Shown in pieces: positions 8,061 through 51,372 of a stretch of 64,000 nucleotides of DNA. Below the pieces are notes generated by a model, which saw nothing but the letters and a program-made list of their open reading frames with translations, was not told the DNA's origin and did no database searches. The DNA is from Ascaphus truei (lineage: Eukaryota > Chordata > Amphibia > Anura > Ascaphidae): NCBI GenBank assembly GCA_036426205.1, contig CM071573.1, forward strand, positions 72,762,580 to 72,826,579, in the 5' to 3' direction. How positions within the stretch are numbered: position 1 is the stretch's first letter; the number at the start of each line of letters is the position of its first letter. The translations under genes and the position numbers were made by a program.

Positions 8061-8302
8061 ATGCAAATACAACTGTATGCTCATCTGCATGTCTTAGGCA
8101 GGTCTGCAACCCAGCCTTTTCTCCATTATCACCCAGCATACAGCCTTCCACTGCAGCAAGGATTCTGGGAAATGACATGCAAATGACGCACACGTGTCAC
8201 TTTTTGCCTCAAAAAACATTTTTAAAACATGGTTCCCTATAGGCTTAACGTTGCTGCATGGTCACAGCTTGGAGCACAGCCAGGGTGTAGGTGCATACCC
8301 AG

Positions 8303-8365
8303 AAAAAACACCCACAGACAGCTGTTTCGACCTTGATGGGTCTCATCAGTGTGGGGTGATTTTTA
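8303..8365 (-). ncRNA. type I hammerhead ribozyme, copy 1
   Basis: Read on the minus strand, the parts come in this order: helix I strand CCCACA; core CTGATGA (8343-8349); helix II GACC/GGTC closing a six-base loop CATCAA; core GAA plus A15.1 (8325-8328); a two-base-pair helix III (A-U, C-G) with loop AGCT; cleavage triplet GTC (8317-8319); and helix I partner TGTGGG. Helix I extends outward with bulges (ATCAC with GTG, then A-run with T-run). All invariant core bases are present. A two-base-pair helix III is typical of Penelope/retrozyme hammerheads, which are thought to work best as dimers. Predicted cleavage is between plus-strand bases 8316 and 8317. Confidence 0.85.
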
Positions 8366-8695
8366 ACTGGGTCCAAGAGGCTATGGGATAGGCTATACAC
8401 TAATACGAGTTAATTATGGTAGTAAAAAAAGTGACAAAAAACCCTCCACAGGAACAGCAAATATGCAAATACAACTGATGCTCATCTGCATGTCTTGACA
8501 GGTCTGCAACCCCCCTTTCCCCATTATCACCCGCATACGCACTTCCACTGCAGCAAGGGATTCTGGGAAATGACATGCAAATGAGCACACAGTGTCACTT
8601 TTTGCCTCAAAAACCATTTTTAACATGGTTTCCCTAAAGGCTTAAGCTGCGTCATGGTCACAGCTTTGAGCACAGCCAGGGTTAAGGTGCATACC

Positions 8696-8758
8696 CAAAA
8701 ACCACCCACAGACAGCTGTTTCGACCTTGATGGGTCTCATCAGTGTGGGGTTGTTTTA
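8696..8758 (-). ncRNA. type I hammerhead ribozyme, copy 2
   Basis: The core and helices II and III are identical to copy 1: CTGATGA at 8737-8743, helix II GACC/GGTC, GAAAC, loop AGCT, and GTC at 8711-8713. Helix I is CCCACA/TGTGGG with an outer extension (AACAACC against GGTGGTTTT). The core stayed intact while the rest of the monomer carries many indels relative to copy 1, which fits selection or recent copying. Predicted cleavage is between 8710 and 8711. Confidence 0.85.
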
Positions 8759-8994
8759 ACTGGGTATGCAAAGAGGCTATGGGATGGCTATACCATAAAT
8801 ACTGAGTTAATTTATGGGAGTGAGTAAAAAAAGTGACAACCCTCCACAGGAAGCAAATATGCAAATACAACTGTAGCTCATCTGCCATGTCTTAGAGGTC
8901 GCAACCCACCTTTCCCATTATCACCCAGCATTTAGCACTTCCACTGCAGCAAGGGATTTGGAAAATAACATGCAAAATGAGCACACATATATAT

Positions 8995-16440: not shown

Positions 16441-19400
16441 TCACAGCCAAATTGTGTTGTCATTCACCCCTTGAATATCTGTCTGGGCCAGCCAGGGCGG
16501 CCAGACCTTTTGGAATTTATCGCCGGAGTCATTAACTAGGCTCGTTAATTTCTCCATCCGGCATATGAACCAAATTCTGTTCCTGATCTTTGCTATTGAT
16601 GGAATTGCATTCTGATTCCACAGTGCTGCGGTCTTGCACCTCATAGCTGTTGCAAAATGTGCTATTAATTTGTTCCCCGTGCGCGAAACATCCTTTGTGG
16701 GTTTGCTTAACAGAAACAGCCACGGGTCCAGCTGAATTTGGAGGCCCAAAAAAATCCTCTGTAGCCAATCTTGAATCTGGATCCAAACAGGTACTATTTT
16801 CGGGCAAGTCCAAAGCATGTGTACCAGGTCCCCCCGTTCCCCGCACCGCCTGGGGCAGAGCGGGGAAAAGCCCGGGACGAATTTAGCTAATCTAACTGGG
16901 GTGAGATACCATCGTAACATTACCTTATATGAGTTCTCCTTTAATGTCGTGCAAATGGAGCTACTAGCTGCAGCCTTAAATATCGCTGTCCAGTCCTCTA
17001 GTGTGCACTGTAAGTCTGATTCCCATTGGTCCATAAATCTGGGCTTGTTCGTACCGTCCTTGTCAGCACCGACCACGTCTCTGTACAAAGCAGAGATCAG
17101 TCCCCGCAGGTCTGTACCTCTCCCGCAGAGCCTTTCGAAATTTGTTAACTGTGGTCTCACTGGGTGTGCGTTGTAAAATGCCCGGACTTGGAGGTACCTA
17201 ATAAATTCTGTGTTGGGAATGTCCGTTTCTGACTTTAATAGCTCAAATGATTTAATTGTGTTACTACCCTCCAGGTCCTTCAACCTCCTAATCCCAAATT
17301 TGCGCCACAGTGGGAAACTCTTGCCTGCTAGTCCAGGAGCAAAATCCAGATTGCCATATAAGGGAGCCATACGTGTGTGTTTGGAGGTTAGCAAGTGGTT
17401 ACCTTTAGACGCCTCCCAGACCGAGAGCGAGTTGAGCACAGAGGTCAGTGGTTCATTTATGTCCTTTACCCGTATCCTCGGGTAACAGATTAGGTCACTA
17501 AGCTCTAGAGTGGCACACCTCTCCTTCTCCAGTGCCACCCACCTCCTGAGCTCGGGGTCCCCATGCCATTGCGTGATTTGGCACAATTGCGCCGCTTTGT
17601 AGTAGGACATAATGCTCAGGACAGCTAGACCCCCCCCCCCCTCCTTAGACTTCTGCATCATTTTGGCATTTATCCTTGGATTTTTACACTTCCATATAAA
17701 TTTTGATATCGATTTTTGAAGACCTGTGATATCCGCCCTTGTCACGGGTACTGGGAGAGTTTGAAACAGGTATAAAATCCGGGGGAGGATGTTCATCTTG
17801 ACACTATAGATCCTACCTAACCATGAGATACCATATGCTGCCCAGTCTTGTAATTCCTTTTTTAGAGTCTTCAATAGACTAGGGTAGTTTGCTTGATATA
17901 GGGCGCCTATCTTTTTTGTGATATGCACCCCTAGGTACCTTATGGATGAGGGTCGCCACTTAAACTGGAAGTTGAGTTCTATCAGCTTCTCCATCTCCCG
18001 GGGGTTGTTAAGGCTTAGTGCCTCTGATTTTGTTTGATTTATTTTAAACCCCGAGATCTGGGCAAATCGCTCTAGAAGCTCGAACAGGTTAGGTAACGAG
18101 ATGAGCGGCTTGGTCAGGGTCAGAATAATATCGTCTGCGTACAAAGCCTCTTTGTGTTCTTGCGAGTGTATTTGTACCCCAGAGATATCAGAGTTGCTGC
18201 GAATTTGGGCTGCAAGTGGTTCGATGCATAGGGCAAACAGCAAGGGCGATAACAGGCATCCTTGTCTCGTACCATTTTTAATTGGAAACAGCTCTGAGGG
18301 GAACCCCTGGTGGACCACCCGCGCTGCTGGCGCATTGTAAAGCGCTTTTATTGCCCTCTGGAATCTGCCTCCAAACCGAAATGCCCCAAGCGTGGACTCC
18401 AAGTACGGCCAGTCAATCCTGTCAAAGGCCTTCTCCGCGTCTAAGCTTAAAACCACACTCTGGACCCCGTTGGCTTCCACAAAATCAATTATATCTACAA
18501 TCCGTCTGGTGTTGTCGGCCGCCTGTCTATTTGTAACAAAGCCAACTTGGTCCGGATGGATAAGCCTCAGCAGGATGACGCTTAAACGGTTGGCCAATAA
18601 TTTGGAGTAGATTTTGACATCCGTGTTAATCAATGATATTGGTCGGTAACTTTGGCAATTTGTAGGGTCTTTATCCTCTATATGAATCAAGGAAATCGAC
18701 GCCTGGAGCATCTGTTCAGAAAAGGGCGCTCCCGCTAGCACTCCGTTATATAACCGGAGCAAATGTGGAGCAAGAACTCCTATAAATTTTTTATAGTATA
18801 GGTTTGAGAACCCATCTTGGCCTGGGGCTTTAGAGGGCTTCAAACCCTTGACCACCGCTGCCAATTCTTCCTCTGTGAAGTCGCCCTGGAGTGACTCTCG
18901 CTCCAAGCTGTCCAATTGTGGCAATGCTGCGTCTGCTAGGAATTTCCACAGTTTACTGCTTGTCTTAGCATTGTGAACCACCTTCTCCCCATTATATAGC
19001 TGTGTATAGAACTTTTTGAACTCTTCCACAATAACTTTGGGATTAGATGAGACCCTCCCCCCTGCCGTCTTAATAGAATGTATATTGAAATTTGGCTTTC
19101 TATTGCAGAGTCTGGTGCCTAGCATAGTGTCCGGCTTATTAGCCTTCTCAAAAAACTTCCTCTGTGTCCAGCTCAGATCCTTCTCAGCCCGGGATGTGAG
19201 GAGGAGGTTAAGCTCAATCCTTACATCCTTCAACTCCTGTAAAGTATCTGCTCTACCTGATCGGTTATGTAGTGTAGAGAGCTCGTGTAACCTCTGGTAT
19301 AGCAGGGTCAATTTGGCCTCCCTTTTTTTTTTTTCCTGGCTGCTATGCCTATAAGTGCTCCCCGCATCGTGGCTTTGTGAGCCTCCCACAGCGTTGTGTG

Positions 19401-20240
19401 GGATTCCACACTGTCGAGATTAGTCTGGAAATACTGCGAGATTTCCTCTTTAACGAGCTTTGCAATATCAGGTATTTTGATCAACGATTCATTGAGTCTC
19501 CAATTTGCTCCAGAACTAGCCGGACCAATTTGCACGCATCTCAGCTCCATAGACGCGTGATCCGACCATGTGATGTCATGTATGTTAGTGTCGTAAATCT
19601 GTGGGACCATTCTGCTAGAGACAAAGAAGTGGTCAATCCTGCTGTAGCTGTCGTGGGGATGGGAATAAAATGTGTAACAACGTTCTCCCTGGTGTTGTTC
19701 TCTCCATATGTCTACTAGGCCCAACTGTCTAAGTCCTTTCAGCATCGGCCCATTACCCTCTCTCCTCTGGTTCTGCTGGAGTGGGGAACGATCTGCCCTT
19801 GGGTCCATAACCTTATTGAAGTCCCCTGCCAGTACTACATATCCTTCCGCCCAGCGCTGGAGCGTCCGAAAAAATTCTTCAAAGAACCGAGATTCAATAG
19901 TGCTGGGCGCATATACGCACGCCAATGTCAATCTGCTTTGCTTCATGGGGCCCACCAGAATGATGTACCTCCCTTTGGGATCTCGCTTCACTTTCTCAAC
20001 TTGAAAGGGGGGTTTATTATGGAATAATATGGCTACTCCTCTTTTCATTTCCTCTGCAGAGGACAGATATACCTGTCTAAAATGCTTGTCTAAAAACTTT
20101 GGCCTGTTTTGGGTGCTAAAGTGAGTCTCCTGCAGGAAGACAACGTCGGCCCGTCTACGCCGAAATTCGGAGAAGGCAACCTTTCTCTTATTCGGGCTAT
20201 TAAATCCCTTGACGTTCTGGGAAAGGAATGTTACCGCCAT
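16441..20240 (-). pseudogene. L1/Tx1-like ORF2: endonuclease, reverse transcriptase, CCHC
   Basis: The 3800-nt span is about 1266 codons plus two extra bases. The first ~300 residues are an APE-type endonuclease with SQNVKG, QETHF, VYAPS, AGDFN, SRIDHFFVS and WSDHA. The reverse transcriptase follows, with KAPGQDGFS, YRPISLINTD, VLSLDAEKAFDRIDW (motif A), GTRQGCLLSPLLF (motif B), YADDIILT (motif C, catalytic YADD) and GFKINQTKS. Near the C terminus CPRRCGERGDLVHMLWTC is a C-x3-C-x7-H-x4-C zinc-knuckle-like motif. The frame breaks at a T12 tract (19323-19334): the second element has T10 at the same place (43301-43310) and stays open. Downstream of that slip the frame is open for over 950 codons with all catalytic residues kept. 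The start ATG at 20240 lies just before the endonuclease, as in the other copy. Confidence 0.9.
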
Positions 20241-21449
20241 GTACGTGTGTGGTTTGGGTGTATATGTATATAGCAGATCTCTTGCCTACCTAAATATAGC
20301 AAAGGTTGGTTTCCTGTTCGTCGATGTTGGTGGCTGCTGCAGATCTTCTTTCTTTCGCCGAGGGGGTCTGGGGTAGGGAAGGGGAAGAACACAAGGGAAA
20401 AACAGAGAAAACATATATTAACAAACAGGACCGTGTTGGTCCCTCCGGACCTCGGGTTCACCGCCCGGGAAGGACTCCCTCTCTCTGGACCCCCCTCCCT
20501 CCAGGTCCAGTACCATGGCCCCTGACTCCGGCCACGTGTTCCCGGGACTTTGACGGGAATGTAGGCTAGGCCCCCATCCCCGCCCATGCAGCGTATGCCT
20601 ACAGGTAGGATTGGCAACATGCCCCCCCCCCCCCGCCGGCAGCAGTAACCGTTGGCGCCAAACTCGCACTTCGAACTTAACTCAACTTTGTCAGTAACTA
20701 CCCCCCCCTCCCTCCCCCCCCCTCCAACTGTTAAACCAACCACCCTCCCCTTGGGCCTTGTAGCCCCAGACCGCAGAGCTCTTCGCGCCTCTATCTCTAT
20801 CCTAAATTGTCGCTCTTCGTCCCTGCAATGTGCCGGTAGCCTCCAATGCTATAAGCCCCTTGGGCTGCTGCGGACCTTTCGGGTCCTTTCCTTCTCCGTC
20901 TCCACCCCCCTCCGTGTGTAGGGACCACTGCAGTTGCCCCCCCTCCACCCAAGTCCGCCCCACGTTCCCCTGGCGGCAAAGTTCGTGCTCCCCCGCCAGG
21001 GAGTACTGCGTCACCACCAGCGACAGATGGTACTCGGGCTTCCGTCTTCGCTCCCGCGAGCCCGGAAGAGCATCCAGATACCGCGAGACCAAGCCGGGTG
21101 ATGTCATCAGGATGGGCGCGGGGAGCGCATTCGAGGGCTAACCATCGGGAGGAGAGGGTGGATCCGGAGGCGGGCCAAGGCAGCGGAGCAGTCTTTCACG
21201 CCGAAATCCACGCCGCCATGGGATTTTCGCGCCTCTGCCCCAGGTAAGCCCGCGCGGCCATTTTAGGGGTCTGGATTCAGAGTTAGTGTACAAGGGATAT
21301 CAATCACCCCCGGCTGTCTGAAGATTCTGAGAAGGTCACGAACAGTTTGAGCTGTGGGGTTAGTCTAGGCAATAACTGGAACAAAACCAAAATATATTTA
21401 TACATCCGCTTTGGCATCGCTTTGCTGCGACTGCGGCACCCTTGATGAT
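20241..21449 (-). other. long inter-ORF segment of element A
   Basis: There are about 1.2 kb between ORF1 and ORF2, GC-rich and full of C-runs (20620-20632, 20701-20722). It shares scattered words with the corresponding segment of element B (GATCTTCTT...CTGGG near 20342 and 44288; GGCAACAT near 20612 and 44584). No conserved protein is visible in it. Confidence 0.55.
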
Positions 21450-35076: not shown

Positions 35077-35078
35077 TA

Positions 35079-35364
35079 CTGCACCGACACACTTTATTCG
35101 AGCAAATACCCGGTATGTACCTGGCAGATACCTGGAATGCGCCGCTCCTCACCTCTGACAAGCCCCGTTGCGTTTGCCTTCCCAGCCTGGGTTCATGCCT
35201 GGCTGATGGGCGGCTGATCTGTTAAATGATAATGATTAGGATTTAATAGGCTGCAATGCTTCGCGTGTCTACCAGATGGCATAAATTCATGAATTGTAAT
35301 GCAGTATATATATATATACTGTGCAGTATTGCAGCCAGCGGGAATAAAATGCTTCAATCCCTGC
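35079..35364. mobile_element. TA-flanked MITE fragment (CTGCACCGACACACTTTATT family)
   Basis: It is nearly identical, in inverted orientation, to about 285 bp of the MITE nested in element B (46736-47128). It begins after TA at 35077-35078 and stops at CAATCCCTGC, where the GA-rich array starts, so the far terminal repeat is missing. Confidence 0.75.
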
Positions 35365-36399: not shown

Positions 36400-37985
36400 C
36401 TGAAGGGTCGGTAATTTTCTGGTGAGATGTGTGGAAATTCTGATGAAATTTGTGACATTTTATGGCATCTGGTGAAAATGTTGCAAATAAATGTATTTTT
36501 GTGAATTTCCAAGTAATGCAAACTTTCACAAACACATTTGTGAAAAAGCGAAATATTTGAGAAAAGGTGAACAGTTCTCCCAAAGCACATTTAATGACAT
36601 TTTCATATCTCTCGTCACCACTGTTCTGGGCAAAAAAAAATATCTTTTAGCTATAGGCTGAATTAAACTATGCTATCACTTGGCCAATTGTTCCTCTACA
36701 CCCCTACACAGTGCTCACAGCAAATTAATTGCCAGCTACTGTAATGTGAGATTTCTTTTTCTGCGGAACAGACTTTTTTTCTAACCAGCTGAAAATTCTA
36801 TTTCAAATGACCAAGCTTGAGCCAGTAGGTAAAAACGATATGGTTTCAGCAAATGTTTTCAATTGCATATATTGTCTTGACTTCTCTCAATGCAGCAGTC
36901 AGTAATATACAGACCACTCTGACAGTACAGTATATCACTGAAATAAGTGAGAAATGAGGCATGTCAAATGTGAATCAAATGTTCAAACCATTAAACACCT
37001 ACAGTATTTTTTAGTTGATCATACTGTATAAACCTTTTTTGATTGGGAATATGAAATTCTTCTTTTTTATGTAACCTTTTTAAGACTGTAATATTAATGG
37101 TAAATATTAAATTTAAATATTAAATTTGAGCATAAAATTGTCCTTAATTTCTAAATATGGTAGATAAAGAAAATACATCACTTTAAAAGCATAATGAATT
37201 GCTTCATGAAAGAACCTTACAATGTTGGAAAGAAAACTTAAATCATTAAATTCTTAACTTAAATAATAAATATATTGAATGTGTATCTATTCAACTAACA
37301 AATGCTTGCCTATTTTAACACTATAGCTTCCTAACTATACAAAGTTATTTTTATATGTTTAGTGCAAGTCCAACACTACTATACATAACAGAAAAAGAAA
37401 ACTATTTAAATATAATTGTATTAATTCAGTTTATTCCCAAACAGTGACTAGCTGTTTCCAGCCTTCATAATACCATTAATTTTGACTTGCAGTTATACTG
37501 CTTATATTTATAAAGAAAATGTTTCTTGCGATTGCTGTATGAGTGGATGTGACTATGTTTAAAAAAAAAAAAATTTGGTGCAACTATTGGATGTAAATAA
37601 TTTTTAGGTGACATGAATTATGATTTCACATTGTAGAACTAAATGCAGCAAGAGGGTTTACATTCTTAGGCTTAGATTCACCAAGGTGTGATAAATCTGT
37701 TCAAATAATGTGATATTACCTACAACAGGAGTGGTTGTTACGTTCCCTGAGTTAACACCTTATTCACTGAGCAAAATGTATGCAAAAACAACTGCAGTTA
37801 TTGGCCTCATTGAAGGAAGGAGGGGAGATACCTATGAGCCCACCTGAGATACCTGGGAAATATGCAAACTCATTGGAATATATTTTAAATAATACATTTG
37901 CATATTCCCCAGGTGTGCTCACAGGTATCTCTGCCATGAATATCAGTGACTCTATTTGGAGGTATATAAGTCAATGTGCCCTCTA
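36400..37985. other. AT-rich unannotated DNA
   Basis: No recognised element; A13 lies near 37560. Confidence 0.5.
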
Positions 37986-38222: not shown

Positions 38223-38275
38223 GCCTCCTGGTTCTCATTTACCAGAATCCCTGGCTTCAGTGGAAGCACTGTATG

Positions 38276-38657
38276 CTAAGGCTTTGTCCCCGTTGCCCGT
38301 GGCTGAGCGCTTGACGATATGTGTGGCGCACACACAGTACAGCCCACAATGGGGCCGACCCCAGTAAGTACCTGCGCGCTCCTGCAGGAAGCGTGATGCG
38401 CGACCGCCTTTGCCAAAAGACATGAAATTCATCTTTTGGTGCGGCGCTCGAGCGCTGGCTAGGTCACGGCAGCGGTTCATCCAATGAGGGCGAACCAGAC
38501 GCTTGACATCGCGCCCCCATCATGCCCCCACCAAAAATCTTCTGTACACGTGTCCCATCACGACCCTAGGACCGCAGATTGAGGCTTAAACTGGTGAATG
38601 TGCCACAAGGCGCTCAGACTCACGCATGCACACAGTGACTGGGGCCTTTAGCCTAAG
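38276..38657. mobile_element. MITE with CTAAGGC termini (hAT-like)
   Basis: It starts CTAAGGCTTTGTCCCC and ends GGGGCCTTTAGCCTAAG. The flanks ACTGTATG and CGTGGATG agree at 5 of 8 positions, compatible with an old hAT 8-bp duplication. The interior is CpG-rich and non-coding. Confidence 0.55.
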
Positions 38658-39211
38658 CGTGGATGGTGAAAGATAGTGTTGCACACCTGTCTGAACATGT
38701 GAATGTGCTCACAAGTGATATTTTTATTAGTTGTACATTGTACAGTGGAAGGTTTTTGTCACTTTTTTTACCCAGTATAACTTATTTAATGTGTGGATGT
38801 TAACTTAGAAGCATAGTGCATCCTCCCTTCCCCCACACAAGTGTACGCCGTTTTTATTCCCTGTCTGACGAACCACCAATAAAGTCATTGCCTAGTAAGT
38901 GCAAGATGCCTATGGCTATGCAGTAGAAATATCTACACAGATGTTTTTACATTCAGAAATCTCACTTATGTAAATCTCATGTAAGCCTCGATGTTACATT
39001 TGTATTGTTTCAAATGATGTAGCCCCCCCAGGCATTAGCTATGTTTATCTTAAAACATAGAAAACTGGGCATTTAAGGGGTTCATTAATTTTACAGTCAC
39101 AGGGACAAGCTCAGCATCTCATGTATAAATACACCTTCTTCCATGCACTAAATATCTGTAATTCATTTACATTAATTATTAGAATTTATCCTATCTCTTA
39201 AGTGTAACACA
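38658..39211. other. unannotated DNA
   Basis: Nothing recognised. Confidence 0.5.
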
Positions 39212-40179: not shown

Positions 40180-43100
40180 TTAGAGCAAAATCGTGGTTCT
40201 CTCTACCCCTGGGATGTCCGTCTGTGCCAGCCAAGGCGTCCAGACTTTTAGGAAATTTTCGCCAGTGTCATTAACTAAACTCGTTAATTTTTCCATCTGG
40301 CATACGTACCAAATTCTATTCCGAATCTTGGGGATCGAAGGAATTTCACTTTGTTTCCATAATGCTGCGATCTCACACCTAACAGCTGTTGCAAAATGCG
40401 CAATTAGTTTGAGATCTACTTTTGCGATTCCCTGGCGGGCTCTACTGAGTAAGAACAGTCCGGGGTCGAATGGAATTTCGAGGCCCAAAATCCTCTGCAG
40501 CCAATCTTGAATCTTACGCCATTGCGGAACTAGCCGAGGGCAAGACCACAGCATGTGTAACAAATCGGCGGATTCTCCGCATTGCCTTGGGCATAACGAG
40601 GAGCTTCCGTTTACAAATTTTGAAAGTTTAAGCGGGGTAAGATACCACCTCATTAGGACTTTATGTTTTCTCCTTTAATGTTGTACAAATTGAGCTCTTG
40701 GCAGCTGCTGTTGCTATTTGAGTCCACTAATCTAGCTCTAGGGTCTCTCCCAGATCGGTTTCCCATTTGAGCATATATCCTAATTTGTGAGTAACTTTGG
40801 AGCTAGAACCAACCACTTCTCTATACATCTGCGATGTAAGTCCCTTTGTGTTTGTCTCTCTCAGACAGAACTTTTCAAATATCGTCAATGAGGGGTGTGG
40901 GTTAGAGTTGTTGTAGAAGGCTCTGATCTGGAAGTATCTATAAAATTCTGCGTGTGGGATGTTTTTATCCGCTCTAATTTGTTCAAACGTTATAATTTTG
41001 TTTCTGTCCTCCAGATCTTTTAATCTCGCTATATTATTGTGTTTCCAAATCTGGAAGTTTGCGCTATTCATACCTGGAGCAAAGTCCGGATTGCCCCACA
41101 GGGGTGTCATCAGGGTGTTTTTGGATGTAAGTCCACATTTAAATTTGACAGCATCCCAAATTGCTAATGAATTGGTCATTGAGGATAGCGGCGGTTGTAT
41201 AGCTTTTTTCCTTGCTATTTTTGGGGTCCATAATATATTGCTTAGCTCCAATGGGGAACAAACCGAGCTCTCCAATGCAACCCATCTTTTCAATTCAGGG
41301 CATGTCTGCCATTGGGAAAGTTGACATAATTGGGCCGCTCAATAGTATGATACCAAGCAAGGTACTGCCAAGCCCCCCTCTGTTGGTTGTCTCAACAGTG
41401 TCTGCTTTTTGATTCGTGCCTTTTTACCTCCCCAAATAAATGTGAGGCTTGTAGCTCGCCTATTTCTTTCAGACTCAAAGGCACTGGGAGCGTTTGAAAC
41501 AAATATAAGATGCGCGGCAGAAGATTCAATTTACGCTATATATTTTGCCTATCCATGAGATATTGAACTTCGACCAGCGCTTTATATCGTCCTTCAGTGC
41601 TCGGATTAACTTCGGGTAATTTGCTTTATAAATTGATTTGAAATTGCTAGTGATAAATACCCCTAGGTATTTGATCGCCGTATGCTGCCAACGAAAATTA
41701 AAGTTTAGGGATATTAGTTTTTCCTCTGCTTTTGGGATAGTAACGTTTAGAGCCTCCGATTTTGATTGGTTAATTTTGAACCCTGAAATTTTATTAAACC
41801 TATCTAACACGCTGTAGAGGTTGGGGAGAGAGGTGAGCGGCTGTGTTAACACCATGAGGACATCGTCCGCGTAGAGAGCTATTTTGTGGGATTGGTCCTC
41901 TATTTTCAGTCCTGAAATATCTGGATTATCTCTAACTTGAGCCGCTAGCGGCTCCATACACATGGCAAAGAGAAGAGGCGAGAGGGGGCAACCCTGTCTC
42001 GTGCCGCTCTGGATCTTAAAAAGATCTGAGGGGAAGCCTTGGTGTAAGACTTTGGCTGTTGGACCTGAGTAAAGGGCCATAATAGCTGATATTAATTTGC
42101 TATCGAAACCAAATGCTCCAAGCGTATCTTTGAGGTATGCCCAGTCAATCCGATCAAAAGCTTTTTCTGCATCTAGACTTAACACCATAGTTTTAACTTT
42201 TTGTGTATTGGCTATTTCTAGCAGATCAATGATTCGTCGGATGTTGTCTCCCGCTTGTCTATCTTTAATGAAGCCGACTTGATCTGGGTGTATCAGTCTA
42301 GGTAGGATTTGACTTAATCTGTTGGCAATCAATTTGGAATAAATTTTGATGTCTGTATTGATAAGCGAGATAGGCCTGTAACTTTTACAATCAAGAGGGT
42401 CTTTGCCAGATTTATGAATTATAGAGATCGACGCCTGGAGCATGTTTTCGGGGAAGGGGTCTCCTGCTAAAACTGCATTGAACATTTTGAGCAGGTATGG
42501 GGCCAGGGATTCACTATATTTTTTATAATAAAGACCTGAGAAGCCATCTGGTCCCGGGGCTTTCGAGGTCTTTAGATTCTCAATAACATGGGAAACCTCT
42601 TCTAGGGTAAAATCACAACTCAGTCTCTCTCTCTCCTCATCCGTCAGCTTTGGCAGCTTTGCGCTTGTAAGAAATGACTCACGCGCCCTATCTGTGTTCT
42701 GATTATGTCCTATTTTATCCCCGTTATATAGTTTCTTGTAATATAATTTAAATTCTTCAACAATTGCTTTCGGATTACCGGAAATGGAGCCTGATGATTG
42801 TCTAATGGCCTGTATACTATAGTTTGGGGGTCTATTCCTCAATTTGTTTGCGAGCATAGTATCTGGCTTGTTGGCTTTATCGAAAAATTTCCTCTTTGAC
42901 CAATTCAGCGATATATCAGCCTGGGATGTTAGTACAGCAGCGGCAGCTTTTATTCGAGTAAAAGCCGCCGGCTGCATGCGTCTGGGAAGCGGGGGTGCGG
43001 GGAAGCAGAGGGGCAGAGCAGGAGCCGGGTTCGGGGTCGGGAAGGGGGGGTGAATTGCGCGCGAAGTGGAGGGGGGGTGCGTGGGGGAAACGCGGCGGCG

Positions 43101-44219
43101 CGCGGTTATTACTGGCGGCAGCTGGGGTAGATCCCGGCATGCCGCCGGCATTTAGTGCAATAAAAGATGTCGCTACTGTAGTAGGTTTAGTTCTATTTTG
43201 GCATCTTTAATTTGTTTGAGTAGGTTGGGGTGATTGGTCTGCTTATGCTTGTCCGAGAGGTCTTTTAGCTTGGATTGTAGCAACTCTATTTTTGCCTCCC
43301 TTTTTTTTTTCCTTCTCGAGGCAATGCTAATTAATATACCCCTCAACGTTGCCTTATGGGCCTCCCAGAGGGATAGATAAGATTTCACTGTGCCTTCGTT
43401 CAGCTTAAAATATTGATCTATTTCTTCGGCTACTAACTGAGTAGTTTCTGGGTTTTTCAGAAGGGATTCATTTAGCTTCCAGTTTGCTCCAGGTCTGTCT
43501 AGAATTAATTGGGAGCACCTTAGCTCTATAGGCGCATGATCTGACCATGAAATATCATGTATCCCTGTATGGGAGATCTTTGGGACCAGTCTGCTGGAGA
43601 TAAAGAAGTAGTCGATTCTGCTATAGGATGAGTGAGGGTGCGAGAAGAATGTGTAGTCTCTCTCGTGGGGGTGTTGTTCCCTCAAGATATCAAGGAGATT
43701 GTTTTCTTTCAGGCCTGAACATAATGTATGGGAGGCGTTTTTAGCATATCGTAGTTGGGAGCCTGACCTGTCAAGCTTAGGGTTGAGAGTTGTATTAAAG
43801 TCTCCCGCTACTATTATTGGGCCTTGTGCAACTTTATTCAGCTTATTAAAGACTAGCGTAAAAAAGCAAGGGTCGTGATCGCCCGGGGCGTATATAGAAG
43901 CTAATGTTAGGATTTGTCCATTGATTGAGCCGGTTAAGATTAGGTATCTCCCCTCTTTATCTCTGATTGTTTTTTCTACTTTGAATGGGCATTTATTATG
44001 AAATATAATTGCTACTCCTTTTGTTTTCTTAGTGGAGGATGAGAGGTAGAATTGCCTGAATCGTTTATCTAAATATTTTGGGGCGCTGCTTGTGCTAAAA
44101 TGCGTCTCTTGCATTAATATAATATCCGCATGTTTCCTCTGGTAGTCAGCGAATGCCACTCTACGTTTACCCGGACTATTCATCCCTTTTACGTTATGAG
44201 ATAAGATTATTAACCCCAT
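40180..44219 (-). pseudogene. L1/Tx1-like ORF2 of element B, interrupted and frameshifted
   Basis: Start ATG at 44219. The endonuclease segment has LSHNVKG, MQETHFS, SIYAPG, AGDFN, SRIDYFFIS and WSDHAPIEL. The reading frame is continuous through the SRRKKKREAK linker until the MITE at 42935-43178. It resumes with the reverse transcriptase: KAPGPDGFS, YRPISLINTD, LSLDAEKAFDRIDW, GTRQGCPLSPLLF and YADDVLMVL. A frameshift near 41526 and further breaks between 41526 and 40653 follow. The last frame keeps CPRQCGESADLLHMLWSC, the C-terminal zinc-knuckle-like motif, and ends at 40180. All catalytic motifs survive but not in one frame. Confidence 0.88.
42935..43178. mobile_element. 244-bp TA-flanked MITE nested in ORF2 of element B
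   Basis: It begins CAGCAGCGGCAGCTTTTATT and ends, reverse-complemented, CAGTAGCGACATCTTTTATT. TA is duplicated at 42933-42934 and 43179-43180. Removing the insert plus one TA restores an alignment without gap to element A's ORF2. TA duplication and CAG termini suit the Tc1/mariner/pogo group. The body is GC-rich and non-coding. Confidence 0.85.
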
Positions 44220-46016
44220 TTTAAAGTAGTTAACCGATTTATCCTAACCATAGAGATTATTGTGGGGTGTGAGTGTTTGCGTTGTACCTGATCTTCTTCT
44301 GTCCGGGTCTGGGATGGATTTGAGGTCTGTCCTTCAGCGCTTCGCGAGTCTCGTGGCCAACTGGGGAGAGGGAGGGTAGGGAGAGAAAACAAGGAAGGTA
44401 ACATAAAATAAAGTAACATAGGAGATACTTGTGGGGTCCATGACCCCAAAGGATCTCTTGCCTTTGGAGGAAAGTTTGTATCCCATGCACCGCTACCTGG
44501 TGCATGCCTAACCGAACTAAGTCGGTCCCTTCCTTCCCAAAGGTCTTGAGTGGATGCCCTGTGGCTAGCCAGGGCATTCCTGTCGGCAACATAGCGAGGG
44601 CTGGGAACGGGAGGCTCCCCCCCTCGGCTCTGCTTAACATAAAAAGCTACTAAACACTACTAGGTAAATAACAACCGTAACTTAAGATATGCTTGAATCC
44701 AACTTGCAAAACCAAGGAAAAAGGTGTGACATCATATTTGGACAATACCCTATTGCAGACTGACATGACATAGGGCTGACCCCCCTGAATTCTGCGGTTT
44801 TCTTTAACATTTTTATTGGCACCCCTGCTATTGTACTCTCCTTTAGCCCTCCTGATCCCCCGGTATCACCCCACCTCCGAGAAGCTTATTCCCCCTGTCT
44901 CTAGCTAAACCTGTTCAGGTGTGTCTCCACCCTGATGCTTCGCCACTTATCTCTTAGCCGGGCCATTTCCTATTGTGTGAGTGTGTTAGGTACCTATTTG
45001 GATTGTGCTTATGTCCTGTCCCCAATCCTCCTGGGGGATTGTTAAGGTGCCAGATGTAGGTGTATGGGTAGGTAGGAGCGTACTATTGTTCCTGTTCTGG
45101 GATCTGTGTGTTAATGAGTCTTTATATGTTTGTGTTTATGATCAGACCTTTGTGGTACCGTGTTTATCTAAGGACTCGCATATATTCTTTACTGCCTCCT
45201 TTTCATGGGAGATAATGTATTTCTACGACATCCCCATTCAGGGGCCATAGGTGTCTCGCATACGGTATAAATCTCCTGCACATGCGAGTCCTCGTTCGCC
45301 TCTGGTATATCCCTACATGCATACTACATTCATCCGCAGTCCGCTGCTCATGTTCCTGGCTAGAAAACGCGATATGTGGTGCATAGCTAGACCTATTATA
45401 CCTCTATTATACAGACCCTGTTATTATGTCCCTTCTGAGAATATATCTATTTATACTTATTTATTTATTTGTTTATAATCCCATGTATTCCGCCACCCTC
45501 TATCCCCTTTATTATATTTAGTCGGATTATTATACCCCCACTACTGTTTGAGCTCAAGCGCACTAATAATTTATATCCCTTTCAGATTGCATTCACTCTG
45601 TCCCATGTCAAGCATAGCCCATACATATGTACAGTATATCCCAGCTCACAAACCGTGCAGACAGTAGTCAATAATATAGAGTCCAGGGGCTAGGGGGCAG
45701 CATGGCCTTCTGAGGTTGGGCACTGTCTCCGTTGGTCCATGTTGTTACTCCACTTCTTCTTTAGGTATGCGTCCCTCTGGTGCAGGGGAGGGGGGGGTGC
45801 CTTGTGACCTTGGTGAAGGCCAACAATCCGTTTTGTGTCCACGGGTGCTGTGTCCTCGCCGAGTCCGCTTTCCAGAATCATGTCCGGGTGTACCAAGATG
45901 GCCGCCGAAACTGGATGCACTTTTGAATAAATAAAACTTTACTCCGGCCTTTTGCGAAGCAAATGAACAGTCTGCTGGTATTGCCCTTTTAAGGCTTAAT
46001 TGATCCATTATTGGTA
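44220..46016 (-). other. long inter-ORF segment of element B
   Basis: About 1.8 kb separate ORF1 from ORF2. The part next to ORF2 shares words with element A's inter-ORF segment. The remainder (about 44650-45700) is AT-rich with no recognised content and could include an unrecognised insertion. Confidence 0.5.
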
Positions 46017-47346
46017 TCAATTAAGGGTCTTTTCTTGGGATTTTCGCGCCGTTTGAATCACTCTGCTCCAGCCTGGCTCCGGAGAGGATGTTCCAGCACC
46101 ATCCAGGTCAGTGTCGTCCCCTTGCAGGCCCAGCTTGTGCAGAAATTGGCCCCTTTCTTCCAGGGTACGCAGAGTATGGGCAGCTCCATTCTTTAGGACC
46201 ATCAGCCCGAAGGGAAAAACCCATCGGTACCGCACTCCCTTAGCTCTTAACTGCCTGGTTATGGGGAGGAGGGCCCTCCGTTTGGCGAGAGTAGTAGGAG
46301 CGAGATCCTGAAATATCAGGAGCTTGACCCCCTCGAACTCAACTGAACCCGATGATATTTGGCATACCGCCTCCTTTATTTTAAAATAATGTAGGCGTAC
46401 GATAATGTCCCTTGGAGGGTCATTTGGCTGCGGTTTAGAGCGGAGGGCTCTATGGCATCTGTCCAAGTGTAAGTCGGCCATTTTGTAATGAACTCCTCTG
46501 GGTCTGCATATTCTTCAGGGACGCCACGCACCCTAATGTTGTTCCGACGGTCCCGATTTTCTGCATCCTCCTGTTTGCTGGATAAGTCATTTATTTGTGC
46601 CTGGAGATGAGCTGTAGTTTTGTCTTGTTTGCGGACCGCTTTGATCGTGGAGTCCAGTTTGGTTTCCAGCTCGTCTGTTCTGGCGCCAATACTGTTAATA
46701 TCACGCCTCAAGTCCGTGATTTCCTTATGCATATACACTGGCGACACACTTTATTCGAGCTCGGCTAGTCCCACGAATTCGGGTATACCCGGGTGTATTG
46801 AGGTTTGTGACTGTTTTCTGCCCGAGTGCATTGAGGTATTTTCCAGGCAGGGATTGAAGCATTTTATTCCCGCTGGCTGCAATACTGCACAGTATATATA
46901 TATATATACTGCATTACAATTCATGAATTATGCCATCTGGTAGACACGCGAAGCATTGCAGCCTATTAAATCCTAATCATTCTATTTAACAGATCAGCGC
47001 CCGTCAGCCAGGCATGAACCCAGGCTGGGAAGGCAAACGCAACGGGCGTCAGAGGTGAGGAGCGGCGCATTCCAGGTATCTGCCAGGTACATACTGGGTA
47101 TTTGCTCGAATAAAGTGTGTCGGTGCAGTAGTCCTTAATTTCGTTGCAAAATTCCCGCATTACTTTCCGTGTAATTGACTCTGTGTCTCCCGGGTCAATG
47201 TGATCCTCTGTTAGCTGCTCATCTTCTGAATTCGACCCTGCGGGTGGTGTCGGGGTTCCTGTGCCATTTTTGCACGCCGGATCAGTTTTATTAAAGTACT
47301 TGGTAAGTACTGTGGATGTGCGGGCCGGTTTGGGTCATGTCTGCAT
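46017..47346 (-). pseudogene. L1/Tx1-like ORF1 of element B, interrupted by a MITE
   Basis: The ATG at 47346 is followed after two codons by TGA. The frame then runs through SNSEDEQLTEDHID to REFCNEIKD, where the MITE (46736-47128) is inserted. After it come a coiled-coil-like HKEITDLRRDINSIGART segment, RRNNIRVRGVPEE (the conserved start of the RNA-binding domain), VEFEGVKLLIFQDL and YRWVFPFGLMVL, ending near 46017. One frame change lies near 46490. Without the insert the length is about 311 codons, normal for this family. Confidence 0.8.
46736..47128. mobile_element. 393-bp TA-flanked MITE nested in ORF1 of element B
   Basis: Left terminus CACTGGCGACACACTTTATT; right terminus reverse-complemented CTGCACCGACACACTTTATT. 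TA is duplicated at 46734-46735 and 47129-47130. The empty site rebuilt from the flanks reads straight through in frame. A (TA)n palindrome and CTGCAGT/ACTGCAC words lie in the middle. A partial copy lies at 35079-35364. Confidence 0.85.
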
Positions 47347-50900: not shown

Positions 50901-50968
50901 GAAAGTTACCTAGAGAAGTGTTGTTGGCAGATCTAACTCCATACAATGTAGCTCTGAAAACAATTTAT

Positions 50969-51200
50969 ACCATGCTTCCACTGCAACAAACTATTCTGGG
51001 AAATGGCATACATACTGTATGAGCACTCGCAGTGTGACACTTTTTGCTTCTTATCCACTTTAATACAGATCCCTATAAACTTATGCCTGGTGTTACACAT
51101 CTTTTAAAGCATAGTCTGGGTTAAAAAAAAAAGGGCATAACCAGTAAACCTAATCACAGACCGCTGTTTCAACTTTTGGGGTATCCTCAGCGTGAAGATG
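50969..51200 (-). mobile_element. dispersed, degenerate copy of the hammerhead (retrozyme-like) unit
   Basis: CCACTGCAACA..ATTCTGGGAAATGGCAT, AGTGTGACACTTTTTGC and GACCGCTGTTTC match in order the unit at 8061-8994 (CCACTGCAGCAAGG, ATTCTGGGAAATGACAT, GTGTCACTTTTTGCC, GACAGCTGTTTC). About 230 of ~400 bp are kept. It ends against an L2-type 3' end. Confidence 0.7.
51148..51200 (-). ncRNA. hammerhead ribozyme relic
   Basis: On the minus strand: CTGAGGA (51184-51190; the changed base is the variable position 7), a decayed helix II, GAAAC, loop AGCG and GTC. The core is nearly intact, but helices I and II no longer pair well, so activity is unlikely. Confidence 0.5.
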
Positions 51201-51201
51201 G

Positions 51202-51372
51202 TTAGATTGTAAACACTTCAGGGCAGGGACTCCTTTTCCTAAATGTTACTTTTATGTCTGAAACACTTCTTGCCATTATGTGTTATTTGTATTATTTGTT
51301 ATTTATATGGTTGTTAAGTGTATTACTGCTGTGCAGATTAATGGCGCTATATAAATAAAGATATACATACAT
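51202..51372 (+). mobile_element. L2-type LINE 3' end with ATAC tail
   Basis: TTAGATTGTAAACACTTCAGG, GCAGGGACTCCTTTTCC and GGCGCTATATAAATAAAG, followed by an ATAC tandem tail, form the well-known 3' UTR pattern of vertebrate L2-type LINEs. It is 5'-truncated. Confidence 0.6.

What the first reader, a model, noticed from the sequence alone, without database searches (positions are those of the whole stretch)
8061..8994. Tandem ~400-bp repeat with intact-looking hammerhead ribozymes: a candidate amphibian retrozyme
Seen directly: two full monomers and a partial third, each full monomer with CTGATGA, a 4-bp helix II (GACC/GGTC), GAAAC, a two-bp helix III with loop AGCT, GTC, and pairing flanks CCCACA/TGTGGG on the minus strand. 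The predicted cleavage sites are 394 nt apart, so a self-cleaving transcript would release a ~394-nt linear RNA that could circularise. Known: type I hammerheads with minimal helix III occur in animal retrozymes and Penelope-like elements. The core is identical in both copies although the rest has many indels.
Basis: partly seen in the sequence, partly recalled or inferred. Interest (0 to 1): 0.9.

Follow-up and report, generated by a model that had tools for sequence, protein, structure and literature searches.

The report
Amphibian-type retrozyme with enhancer-like module
A short tandem repeat in what is likely an amphibian genome carries two identical hammerhead-ribozyme sequences 394 bases apart, which are predicted to pair with each other, cut the repeat's RNA and release a small piece that would be closed into a circle: a likely new example of a known kind of mobile element, the retrozyme.

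Summary
On the minus strand, 8994-8061 carries 2.3 copies of a ~396-bp unit. Rfam's type I hammerhead model finds both ribozymes above its gathering score (35.9 bits, E 2.7e-5); the predicted cuts are 394 nt apart. The 45-nt ribozyme holds none of the 39 difference events between copies (p 0.009 for that pre-named stretch; 0.12 for such a run anywhere). The lowest-energy fold of the array pairs the two ribozymes as a double hammerhead, the dimeric form in which axolotl retrozymes cleave best (PMC7229834). Two decayed relatives in the window show a dispersed family. It fits animal non-LTR retrozymes; no Pfam domain lies in 27 of 27 nearby open frames. Unexpected: the unit carries an octamer beside a 17-of-18 ZNF143 site, the distal-enhancer layout of snRNA genes, seen in 0 of 1500 shuffles; no proximal element is supported, and the first copy's module is mutated. 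Species, copy number and insertion ends are unresolved: the genome search did not complete (18 tries). Transcription, cleavage, circles and mobility are untested. A new member of a known kind, moderately interesting.

The parts
8061..8994 (-). Tandem array, 2.3 copies of a ~396-bp unit (outer ends approximate)
   Evidence: TRF; self-alignment
8317..8710 (-). The one complete cut-to-cut unit, 394 nt, G+C 0.452; predicted released RNA
   Evidence: circular-fold energy z -5.4 against 60 shuffles
8705..8749 (-). Hammerhead ribozyme copy 1 (type I); predicted cut between 8711 and 8710
   Evidence: Rfam RF00163 35.9 bits, E 2.7e-5
8311..8355 (-). Hammerhead ribozyme copy 2 (type I); predicted cut between 8317 and 8316
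   Evidence: Rfam RF00163 35.9 bits; RF02275 HH9 model 36.7 bits over 8367-8294, below its gathering score of 52
8712..8719 (-). Palindrome ACAGCTGT, helix III and loop of copy 1; predicted to pair with copy 2 in the double hammerhead
   Evidence: position checked; cross pairing 8 of 8 in the minimum-energy fold
8318..8325 (-). Palindrome ACAGCTGT, helix III and loop of copy 2
   Evidence: cross-pair probabilities 0.43-0.50
8744..8767 (-). 5' arm of extended helix I, copy 1
   Evidence: duplex with its own 3' arm (8710-8687) -20.5 kcal/mol at arm length 24
8350..8373 (-). 5' arm of extended helix I, copy 2
   Evidence: duplex with its own 3' arm (8316-8293) -22.3 kcal/mol at arm length 24
8575..8582 (-). 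Octamer ATTTGCAT of the predicted distal enhancer (DSE)
   Evidence: exact; 265 nt upstream of the second cut
8552..8569 (-). ZNF143/Staf site TTCCCAGAATCCCTTGCT, 17 of 18 positions of the printed consensus
   Evidence: consensus as printed in PMC5006282
8463..8470 (-). Second exact octamer of the unit
8061..8193 (-). Partial third copy, DSE region only, no ribozyme; its ZNF143 site has one base fewer than the middle copy
   Evidence: alignment
50967..51203 (-). Decayed relative: degenerate hammerhead (CTGAGGA, GAAAC, GTC retained) through to the ZNF143-site region
   Evidence: blastn 68% over 227 nt, E 3.6e-10; alignment 167 matches, 46 substitutions, 15 gaps
38235..38276 (+). Decayed relative, ZNF143-site region
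   Evidence: 36 matches, 5 substitutions, 1 gap; blastn E 6e-7
38678..38792 (+). Likely the same relative, continuing downstream (region between the ZNF143 site and the ribozyme; no ribozyme)
   Evidence: 84 matches, 23 substitutions, 7 gaps; a blastn piece at 38745-38771, E 1e-4

Best explanation
The array is likely a non-autonomous non-LTR retrozyme whose RNA is predicted to cut itself at two hammerheads 394 nt apart and to be closed into a small circle that would be copied back into DNA by another element's enzyme. Steps. (1) Transcription of the minus strand: inferred; the complete unit carries an octamer plus ZNF143 site, so it may start just upstream of a ribozyme, or it may be read-through. 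(2) Two neighbouring ribozymes pair crosswise (helix III through the 8-nt palindrome ACAGCUGU, helix I between copies), forming the double hammerhead: predicted by folding, not shown. (3) Both cut after GUC, releasing 394 nt with a 5'-OH and a cyclic phosphate: predicted. (4) A host tRNA ligase closes the circle: inferred from published axolotl and mussel work. (5) Reverse transcription of the circle yields head-to-tail copies that insert at a new site: inferred from the model in print; a tandem array is what it expects. The enzyme donor is unknown: LINE-type reverse transcriptases are in the window, and no Penelope-type domain was found in the open frames scanned.
For: Two Rfam hammerheads above threshold. 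Tandem unit and 394-nt spacing. Ribozyme free of all 39 difference events, p 0.009. The minimum-energy fold of the 934-nt array is the double hammerhead: cross helix III 8/8, both cross helices I 6/6, both helices II 4/4; pair probabilities 0.43-0.50 for cross helix III against 0.0 for the local 2-bp helix III; array energy z -8.3 against 20 shuffles. Cofold of copies 1 and 2 is -53.8 against -37.0 kcal/mol for two monomers, same structure at 5 of 5 flank lengths. Unit circle z -5.4. No frame over 75 codons within the array. Two decayed relatives in the same 64 kb. Octamer/ZNF143 module: 0 of 1500 shuffles of the unit, 0 of 40 Markov windows. Published animal retrozymes share the tandem, noncoding, low-G+C, type I design (PMC7229834, parts 1-4 of 6 read).
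Against: No transcript, cleavage or circle data. Each single copy folds better into a non-ribozyme hairpin (-17.9 and -19.1 against -12.6 and -13.1 kcal/mol). Like-with-like cofolds (1&1, 2&2) do not give the double hammerhead, and the order 2&1 keeps only 3 of 6 pairs in one helix I. In the array ensemble the two cross helices I have probabilities of only 0.38-0.50 and 0.12-0.46, and the single best fold is a vanishing share of the ensemble. The paired fraction of the circle, 0.63, equals that of shuffles, 0.64, below the 'above 70%' stated for metazoan retrozyme RNAs in PMC4918200. A target-site duplication is not established: a 9-nt TATATATAT near both ends has a chance rate of 0.073 in AT-rich DNA. 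The first copy's octamer and ZNF143 site, the ones placed to drive the complete unit, are mutated. A proximal element is not supported. Copy number in the genome is unknown (18 unanswered searches).
Confidence: 0.82

Rival explanations
1. It is a piece of a Penelope-like element: two tandem pseudo-LTR ends with the short hammerheads of that family, left by a full element that has since been lost.
For: Penelope-like elements carry tandem minimal type I hammerheads, in some cases mapped to their pseudo-LTRs (PMC7761336 passages), and such elements co-occur with retrozymes in axolotl (PMC7229834).
Against: Those hammerheads are described as minimal, lacking helix III or the loop contacts; this one has a 2-bp helix III and a long, internally looped helix I. 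27 of 27 open frames of at least 75 codons in 3-14 kb have no Pfam match (frames listed; scans), and 8 chosen frames elsewhere in the window gave LINE-type endonuclease and reverse transcriptase and an RNase H fragment, no GIY-YIG domain.
Confidence: 0.07
2. A dead fossil: a real retrozyme copy that is no longer transcribed or able to spread; the identical ribozymes are chance.
For: First-copy octamer and ZNF143 site mutated, third copy's ZNF143 site short of a base; about 13% divergence between copies including gaps (87% matches); p 0.12 for a run this long anywhere.
Against: Ribozymes intact in both copies (p 0.009 when named beforehand), unlike the relative at 51 kb, which no Rfam model matched even at E up to 5.
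Confidence: 0.35
3. A domesticated regulatory ribozyme like the intronic HH9/HH10 of amniotes.
For: Copy 2 scores 36.7 bits with the HH9 model; similarity of amniote intronic hammerheads to amphibian repeat hammerheads is in print (PMC3088659; PMC6155905; passages).
Against: The HH9 score is below that family's gathering score of 52; the motif is tandem, whereas the mammalian motifs are described as isolated, not tandem (PMC7229834). Host exons around the array were not searched for beyond Pfam scans of open frames.
Confidence: 0.03
4. A simple satellite or tandem duplication in which the hammerhead is a chance resemblance.
For: Hammerhead cores are short; a loose regular expression finds 8 further CTGANGA...GAAA strings in the window, one of them the relative at 51 kb.
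Against: E 2.7e-5 across the whole Rfam library for both copies, and no other hammerhead reached threshold in 64 kb; the arms and folds fit.
Confidence: 0.02

Closest known systems
Axolotl retrozymes Rtz_331 and Rtz_353 (HHR_Amex1, HHR_Amex2), Cervera and de la Pena 2020 (PMC7229834, parts 1-4 of 6 read)
   Same: Type I hammerhead with a weak helix III (Amex2: two base pairs and a tetraloop; Amex1: palindromic tetraloop), tandem noncoding units, better cleavage as dimers.
   Different: Unit 394 rather than 331 or 353 nt; helix II here has no U-U mismatch; sequence relationship not tested (no axolotl sequence at hand).
Newt satellite 2 (Epstein and Gall 1987; extended hammerhead of Pabon-Pena and colleagues 1991; both seen only as references and passages in PMC6155905)
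   Same: ~330-bp amphibian tandem repeat, extended looped helix I, double-hammerhead cleavage; an snRNA-type promoter has been reported for it (recalled, Coats and colleagues 1994; paper not held).
   Different: Satellite DNA against a 2.3-unit array with dispersed relatives; letters not compared.
Hammerheads in interspersed repeats of Xenopus tropicalis (Perreault and colleagues 2011, PMC3088659, passages)
   Same: Amphibian, repeat-associated hammerheads.
   Different: Not compared letter by letter; no sequence available here.
Penelope-like elements with hammerheads (Cervera and de la Pena 2014, as cited in PMC7761336)
   Same: Tandem type I hammerheads in a retroelement.
   Different: Autonomous and coding; minimal hammerheads without helix III or loop contacts.
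Plant LTR retrozymes, such as NbRZ1 of Nicotiana benthamiana (PMC9695139, PMC12029980; search listings only)
   Same: Retrozyme reported to carry its own promoter.
   Different: LTR type, promoter in the LTR; type III hammerheads are stated for plant LTR retrozymes in general (PMC7229834).
Amniote intronic ribozyme HH9 (Rfam RF02275)
   Same: Hammerhead core and looped helix I align over 74 nt.
   Different: Score below the family threshold; here tandem and repeat-borne.

Membership tests
Metazoan non-LTR retrozyme | Type I hammerhead ribozymes | tested here: met
   2 of 2 copies above the RF00163 gathering score
Metazoan non-LTR retrozyme | Short tandem units, ~150-450 bp, dimers upwards | tested here: met
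   396-bp period, 2.3 copies; 394-nt cut spacing
Metazoan non-LTR retrozyme | No coding capacity, low G+C (<50%) | tested here: met
   G+C 0.445; longest frame inside the array 75 codons, without a Pfam match
Metazoan non-LTR retrozyme | No LTR, PBS or PPT | tested here: inconclusive
   The repeat structure is head-to-tail; PBS and PPT were not searched for
Metazoan non-LTR retrozyme | Dispersed multicopy family | tested here: met
   Two decayed relatives in the window; the genome-wide count could not be obtained
Metazoan non-LTR retrozyme | Loop 1-loop 2 tertiary contacts in the hammerhead | not testable with these tools
   Helix I has an internal loop and helix II a 6-nt loop; contacts not modelled
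Metazoan non-LTR retrozyme | Highly self-paired monomer RNA | tested here: inconclusive
   Circle energy z -5.4, but paired fraction 0.63, no higher than shuffles
Metazoan non-LTR retrozyme | Target-site duplications longer than 4 bp, when present | tested here: inconclusive
   9-nt TATATATAT near both ends, chance 0.073
Metazoan non-LTR retrozyme | Expressed as linear and circular RNA | not testable with these tools
   No RNA data
Amphibian retrozyme (dimeric hammerhead type) | Weak helix III, activity as a dimer | tested here: inconclusive
   2-bp helix III with palindromic loop; double hammerhead is the minimum-energy fold of the array; activity not testable
Penelope-like element | Reverse transcriptase with GIY-YIG endonuclease | tested here: not met
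   No such domain in 27 of 27 frames of at least 75 codons in 3-14 kb nor in 8 chosen frames elsewhere. A lone pseudo-LTR would also lack it
Penelope-like element | Minimal hammerhead lacking helix III or the loop contacts | tested here: not met
   Helix III has 2 bp plus loop, as read from the sequence and the Rfam alignment
HH9 intronic ribozyme | Rfam RF02275 gathering score | tested here: not met
   36.7 against 52 bits
snRNA-type promoter (SNAPc-dependent) | DSE: octamer next to ZNF143 site | tested here: met
   In the middle copy: 0 of 1500 unit shuffles; the only such module in the window, 0 of 40 Markov windows. Mutated in the first copy, ZNF143 site altered in the third
snRNA-type promoter (SNAPc-dependent) | PSE | tested here: inconclusive
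   Best match to two human PSE descriptions no better than shuffles: 1345 and 1150 of 1500 as good. No amphibian PSE model was available, so a complete snRNA-type promoter is not claimed

The most novel reading that the evidence does not exclude
The unit, and therefore the RNA circle made from it, carries its own snRNA-type enhancer about 250-265 nt before the cut. An insertion of two or more units would then be a self-starting transcription unit that begins at a ribozyme and ends by releasing one circle: an animal retrozyme that brings its promoter along, against the printed view that plant and metazoan retrozymes seem to lack promoters and rely on read-through (PMC7761336).
Probability: 0.33. 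Interest if true: 0.58.

Novelty: new member of a known kind. Interest (0 to 1): 0.42.

Why it matters
Retrozymes are a natural route to small circular RNAs in animals; how they start transcription and which enzyme copies them are open. This unit makes the first question testable: it has a compact octamer/ZNF143 module that can be mutated, at a distance from the ribozyme that would place a start site at the ribozyme's edge. The fold also gives a clear, checkable case for cleavage by ribozyme pairs rather than single ribozymes.

Tried and rejected
PSE search: two printed human PSE descriptions, no signal above shuffles; a 7-nt ACCATAA match upstream of copy 2 is therefore not claimed. Pol III boxes: 0 B-box and 2 A-box strings in the array, rejected as a type 2 promoter. 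snRNA 3' box: two of the four possible spacings tried (1 and 3 nt), no match with fewer than 3 mismatches, not claimed. Part's output (within the PSE list) was cut from view.

Indel-rich divergence as a sign of error-prone reverse transcription: copies 1 and 2 differ by 25 gap events and 18 substitutions (28 and 29 in the blastn alignment), against gap/substitution ratios of 0.01-0.26 in 16 other repeat pairs of the window (some of these overlap one another). But the one other young pair (46847-47130 with 35077-35364) shows the same excess, 6 gaps and 3 substitutions (5 and 4), so it may be a property of young repeats here or of the assembly; not claimed.

Within-unit matching of helix I arms as a footprint of circle replication: the same-unit pairing is best at arm lengths 14, 16 and 18 but not at 20 and 24, so not claimed.

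Fold of the 51-kb relative's ribozyme as a contrast: dropped, because intact single copies do not fold as hammerheads either.

Relatives elsewhere: 0 matches to a hammerhead pattern in viral contigs and 0 to the exact ribozyme in prokaryote genomes. nhmmer printed nothing and was not repeated. The first dimer script printed nothing and failed; searches did its work.

Papers: PMC7229834 parts 1-4 of 6 read; PMC3088659, PMC6155905, PMC7761336, PMC3499247, PMC9652321, PMC7949045, PMC3282657, PMC7154149, PMC5006282, PMC7936874, PMC4918200 passages only; others as search listings. No held paper on an animal retrozyme with an snRNA-type promoter was seen in the listings (one search showed 15 of 1,660; openly licensed papers only), so absence from print is not claimed.

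Full report
What is there. On the minus strand, window 8994-8061 is a head-to-tail array of a ~396-bp unit, 2.3 copies, 87% matches with 7% indels. A scan of all 64 kb with the whole Rfam library at its curated thresholds gives exactly two matches, both the type I hammerhead ribozyme on the minus strand, at 8749-8705 and 8355-8311, 35.9 bits (threshold 34), E 2.7e-5 each. The predicted cleavage sites lie after bases 8711 and 8317, 394 nt apart. Only one complete cut-to-cut unit lies between two ribozymes.

Is the ribozyme kept? The two aligned copies have 360 matches, 18 substitutions and 25 gap events, 39 events when neighbouring differences are merged; the longest identical run, 49 columns, is the ribozyme. 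By permutation a run this long somewhere has p 0.12; the ribozyme stretch named beforehand being free of all 39 events has p 0.009. In the relative at 51 kb the core letters CTGAGGA, GAAAC and GTC remain, but by reading the letters only 2 of 4 helix II pairs are left, and no Rfam model matched it at E up to 5.

How it would work. A single ribozyme has a helix III of only two base pairs, closed by the palindrome AGCU. Folded alone, each copy prefers a non-ribozyme hairpin (-17.9 and -19.1 kcal/mol against -12.6 and -13.1 for the ribozyme form). Folded together, copies 1 and 2 give the double hammerhead without any constraint: -53.8 against -37.0 kcal/mol for two monomers, the same structure at 5 of 5 flank lengths. 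The minimum-energy fold of the whole 934-nt array does the same, with cross helix III 8 of 8, both cross helices I 6 of 6 and both helices II 4 of 4 (energy -341.1, z -8.3 against 20 shuffles). Pair probabilities are 0.43-0.50 for the cross helix III and 0.0 for the local one; 0.38-0.50 and 0.12-0.46 for the two cross helices I; 0.05-0.22 for the local helices I; 0.85-0.86 for helix II. Against this, two copies of copy 1, or two of copy 2, do not choose the double hammerhead in the same program, the reversed order 2&1 keeps only 3 of 6 pairs in one helix I, and such energies ignore the loop contacts that real hammerheads use. Helix I continues outwards through internal loops (arm duplexes of -20.5 and -22.3 kcal/mol at 24 nt), like the looped helix I extensions of newt hammerheads described in PMC6155905 (passages). 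Published work on axolotl shows that such weak-helix-III ribozymes cleave poorly as single motifs (6% and 22% in an hour) and much better as dimers, and that RtcB tRNA ligase circularises the product in vitro (PMC7229834).

Family. Two decayed relatives lie in the same window: 51203-50967 on the minus strand (68% over 227 nt, E 3.6e-10), running from a degenerate hammerhead to the ZNF143-site region, and 38235-38276 with 38678-38792 on the plus strand, two stretches of the part upstream of the ribozyme, about 380 bp further apart than in the unit. So the unit belongs to a dispersed, ageing family. The array has no frame longer than 75 codons inside it and its G+C is 0.445. All 27 open frames of at least 75 codons in 3-14 kb were scanned with Pfam and none matched; of 8 chosen frames elsewhere, 4 carry LINE-type endonuclease or reverse transcriptase and 1 an RNase H fragment, none a GIY-YIG endonuclease. 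The best named relatives of one LINE reverse transcriptase are from Xenopus tropicalis and Leptobrachium leishanense, with fish further down (120 of 534 hits listed), which supports an amphibian host without proving it. The species and the number of copies in its genome remain unknown because the genome search did not complete (18 tries).

Promoter-like module. The complete unit carries an exact octamer ATTTGCAT (8582-8575) and, starting 13 nt further on, TTCCCAGAATCCCTTGCT (8569-8552), which fits 17 of 18 positions of the ZNF143/Staf consensus as printed in PMC5006282. In human snRNA genes the distal enhancer is often an octamer with a ZNF143 motif (PMC3499247, passages), normally at -250 to -170 (PMC9652321, passages). 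Here it lies 250-265 nt before the cut, so a start site at the ribozyme's outer edge would fit. None of 1500 shuffles of the unit has such a module and none has two octamers; 1 of 1500 has as good a ZNF143 core. Five of the 10 exact octamers of the window lie in this 934-bp array. The module is the only one in the window, and 0 of 40 random windows have one; the window's one other near-match to the ZNF143 consensus, at 2791, has no octamer beside it. A proximal element could not be supported: matches to printed human descriptions are no better than in shuffles. The module is intact only in the middle copy; it is mutated in the first copy, which is the one placed to drive the complete unit, and the third copy's ZNF143 site has one base fewer. 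A review states that plant and metazoan retrozymes seem to have no promoters (PMC7761336, passage), while later plant work reports one in an LTR (PMC9695139 and PMC12029980, listings). I recall a report of an snRNA-type promoter in newt satellite 2, not held here; if that is right, the module may be a trait shared with the newt family rather than new.

Verdict. What is worth following is the built-in enhancer module and the clean double-hammerhead prediction. Transcription, cleavage, circles and mobility are all untested.

Noticed in passing
window 46847-47130 (+) and 35077-35364 (-): A ~290-bp young repeat pair (96% alike) that differs by 6 gap events and 3 substitutions (5 and 4): the same indel excess as between the retrozyme copies, unlike 16 other repeat pairs in the window. 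Either young repeats here gather indels first or the assembly has local indel errors.
   Followed up: partly
window 16441-20285 and 40180-44243 (-): Two LINE-type copies with endonuclease and reverse-transcriptase domains, each split over more than one reading frame; best named relatives of the first are from frogs.
   Followed up: partly
window 51204-51359 (-): Directly upstream of the 51-kb relative lies a different, repeat-like stretch (TTTATTTATATAGCGCC at 51359-51343 to CAATCTAA) abutting the degenerate ribozyme; it may be another mobile element joined to it.
   Followed up: no
window 37825-37931 (+): Two near-perfect inverted repeats, one largely inside the other (22 and 18 nt), with an exact ATTTGCAT at 37896.
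   Followed up: no
window 38277-38677 (+): About 400 bp between the two matching stretches of the 38-kb decayed relative, where the unit has about 20; likely an insertion.
   Followed up: no
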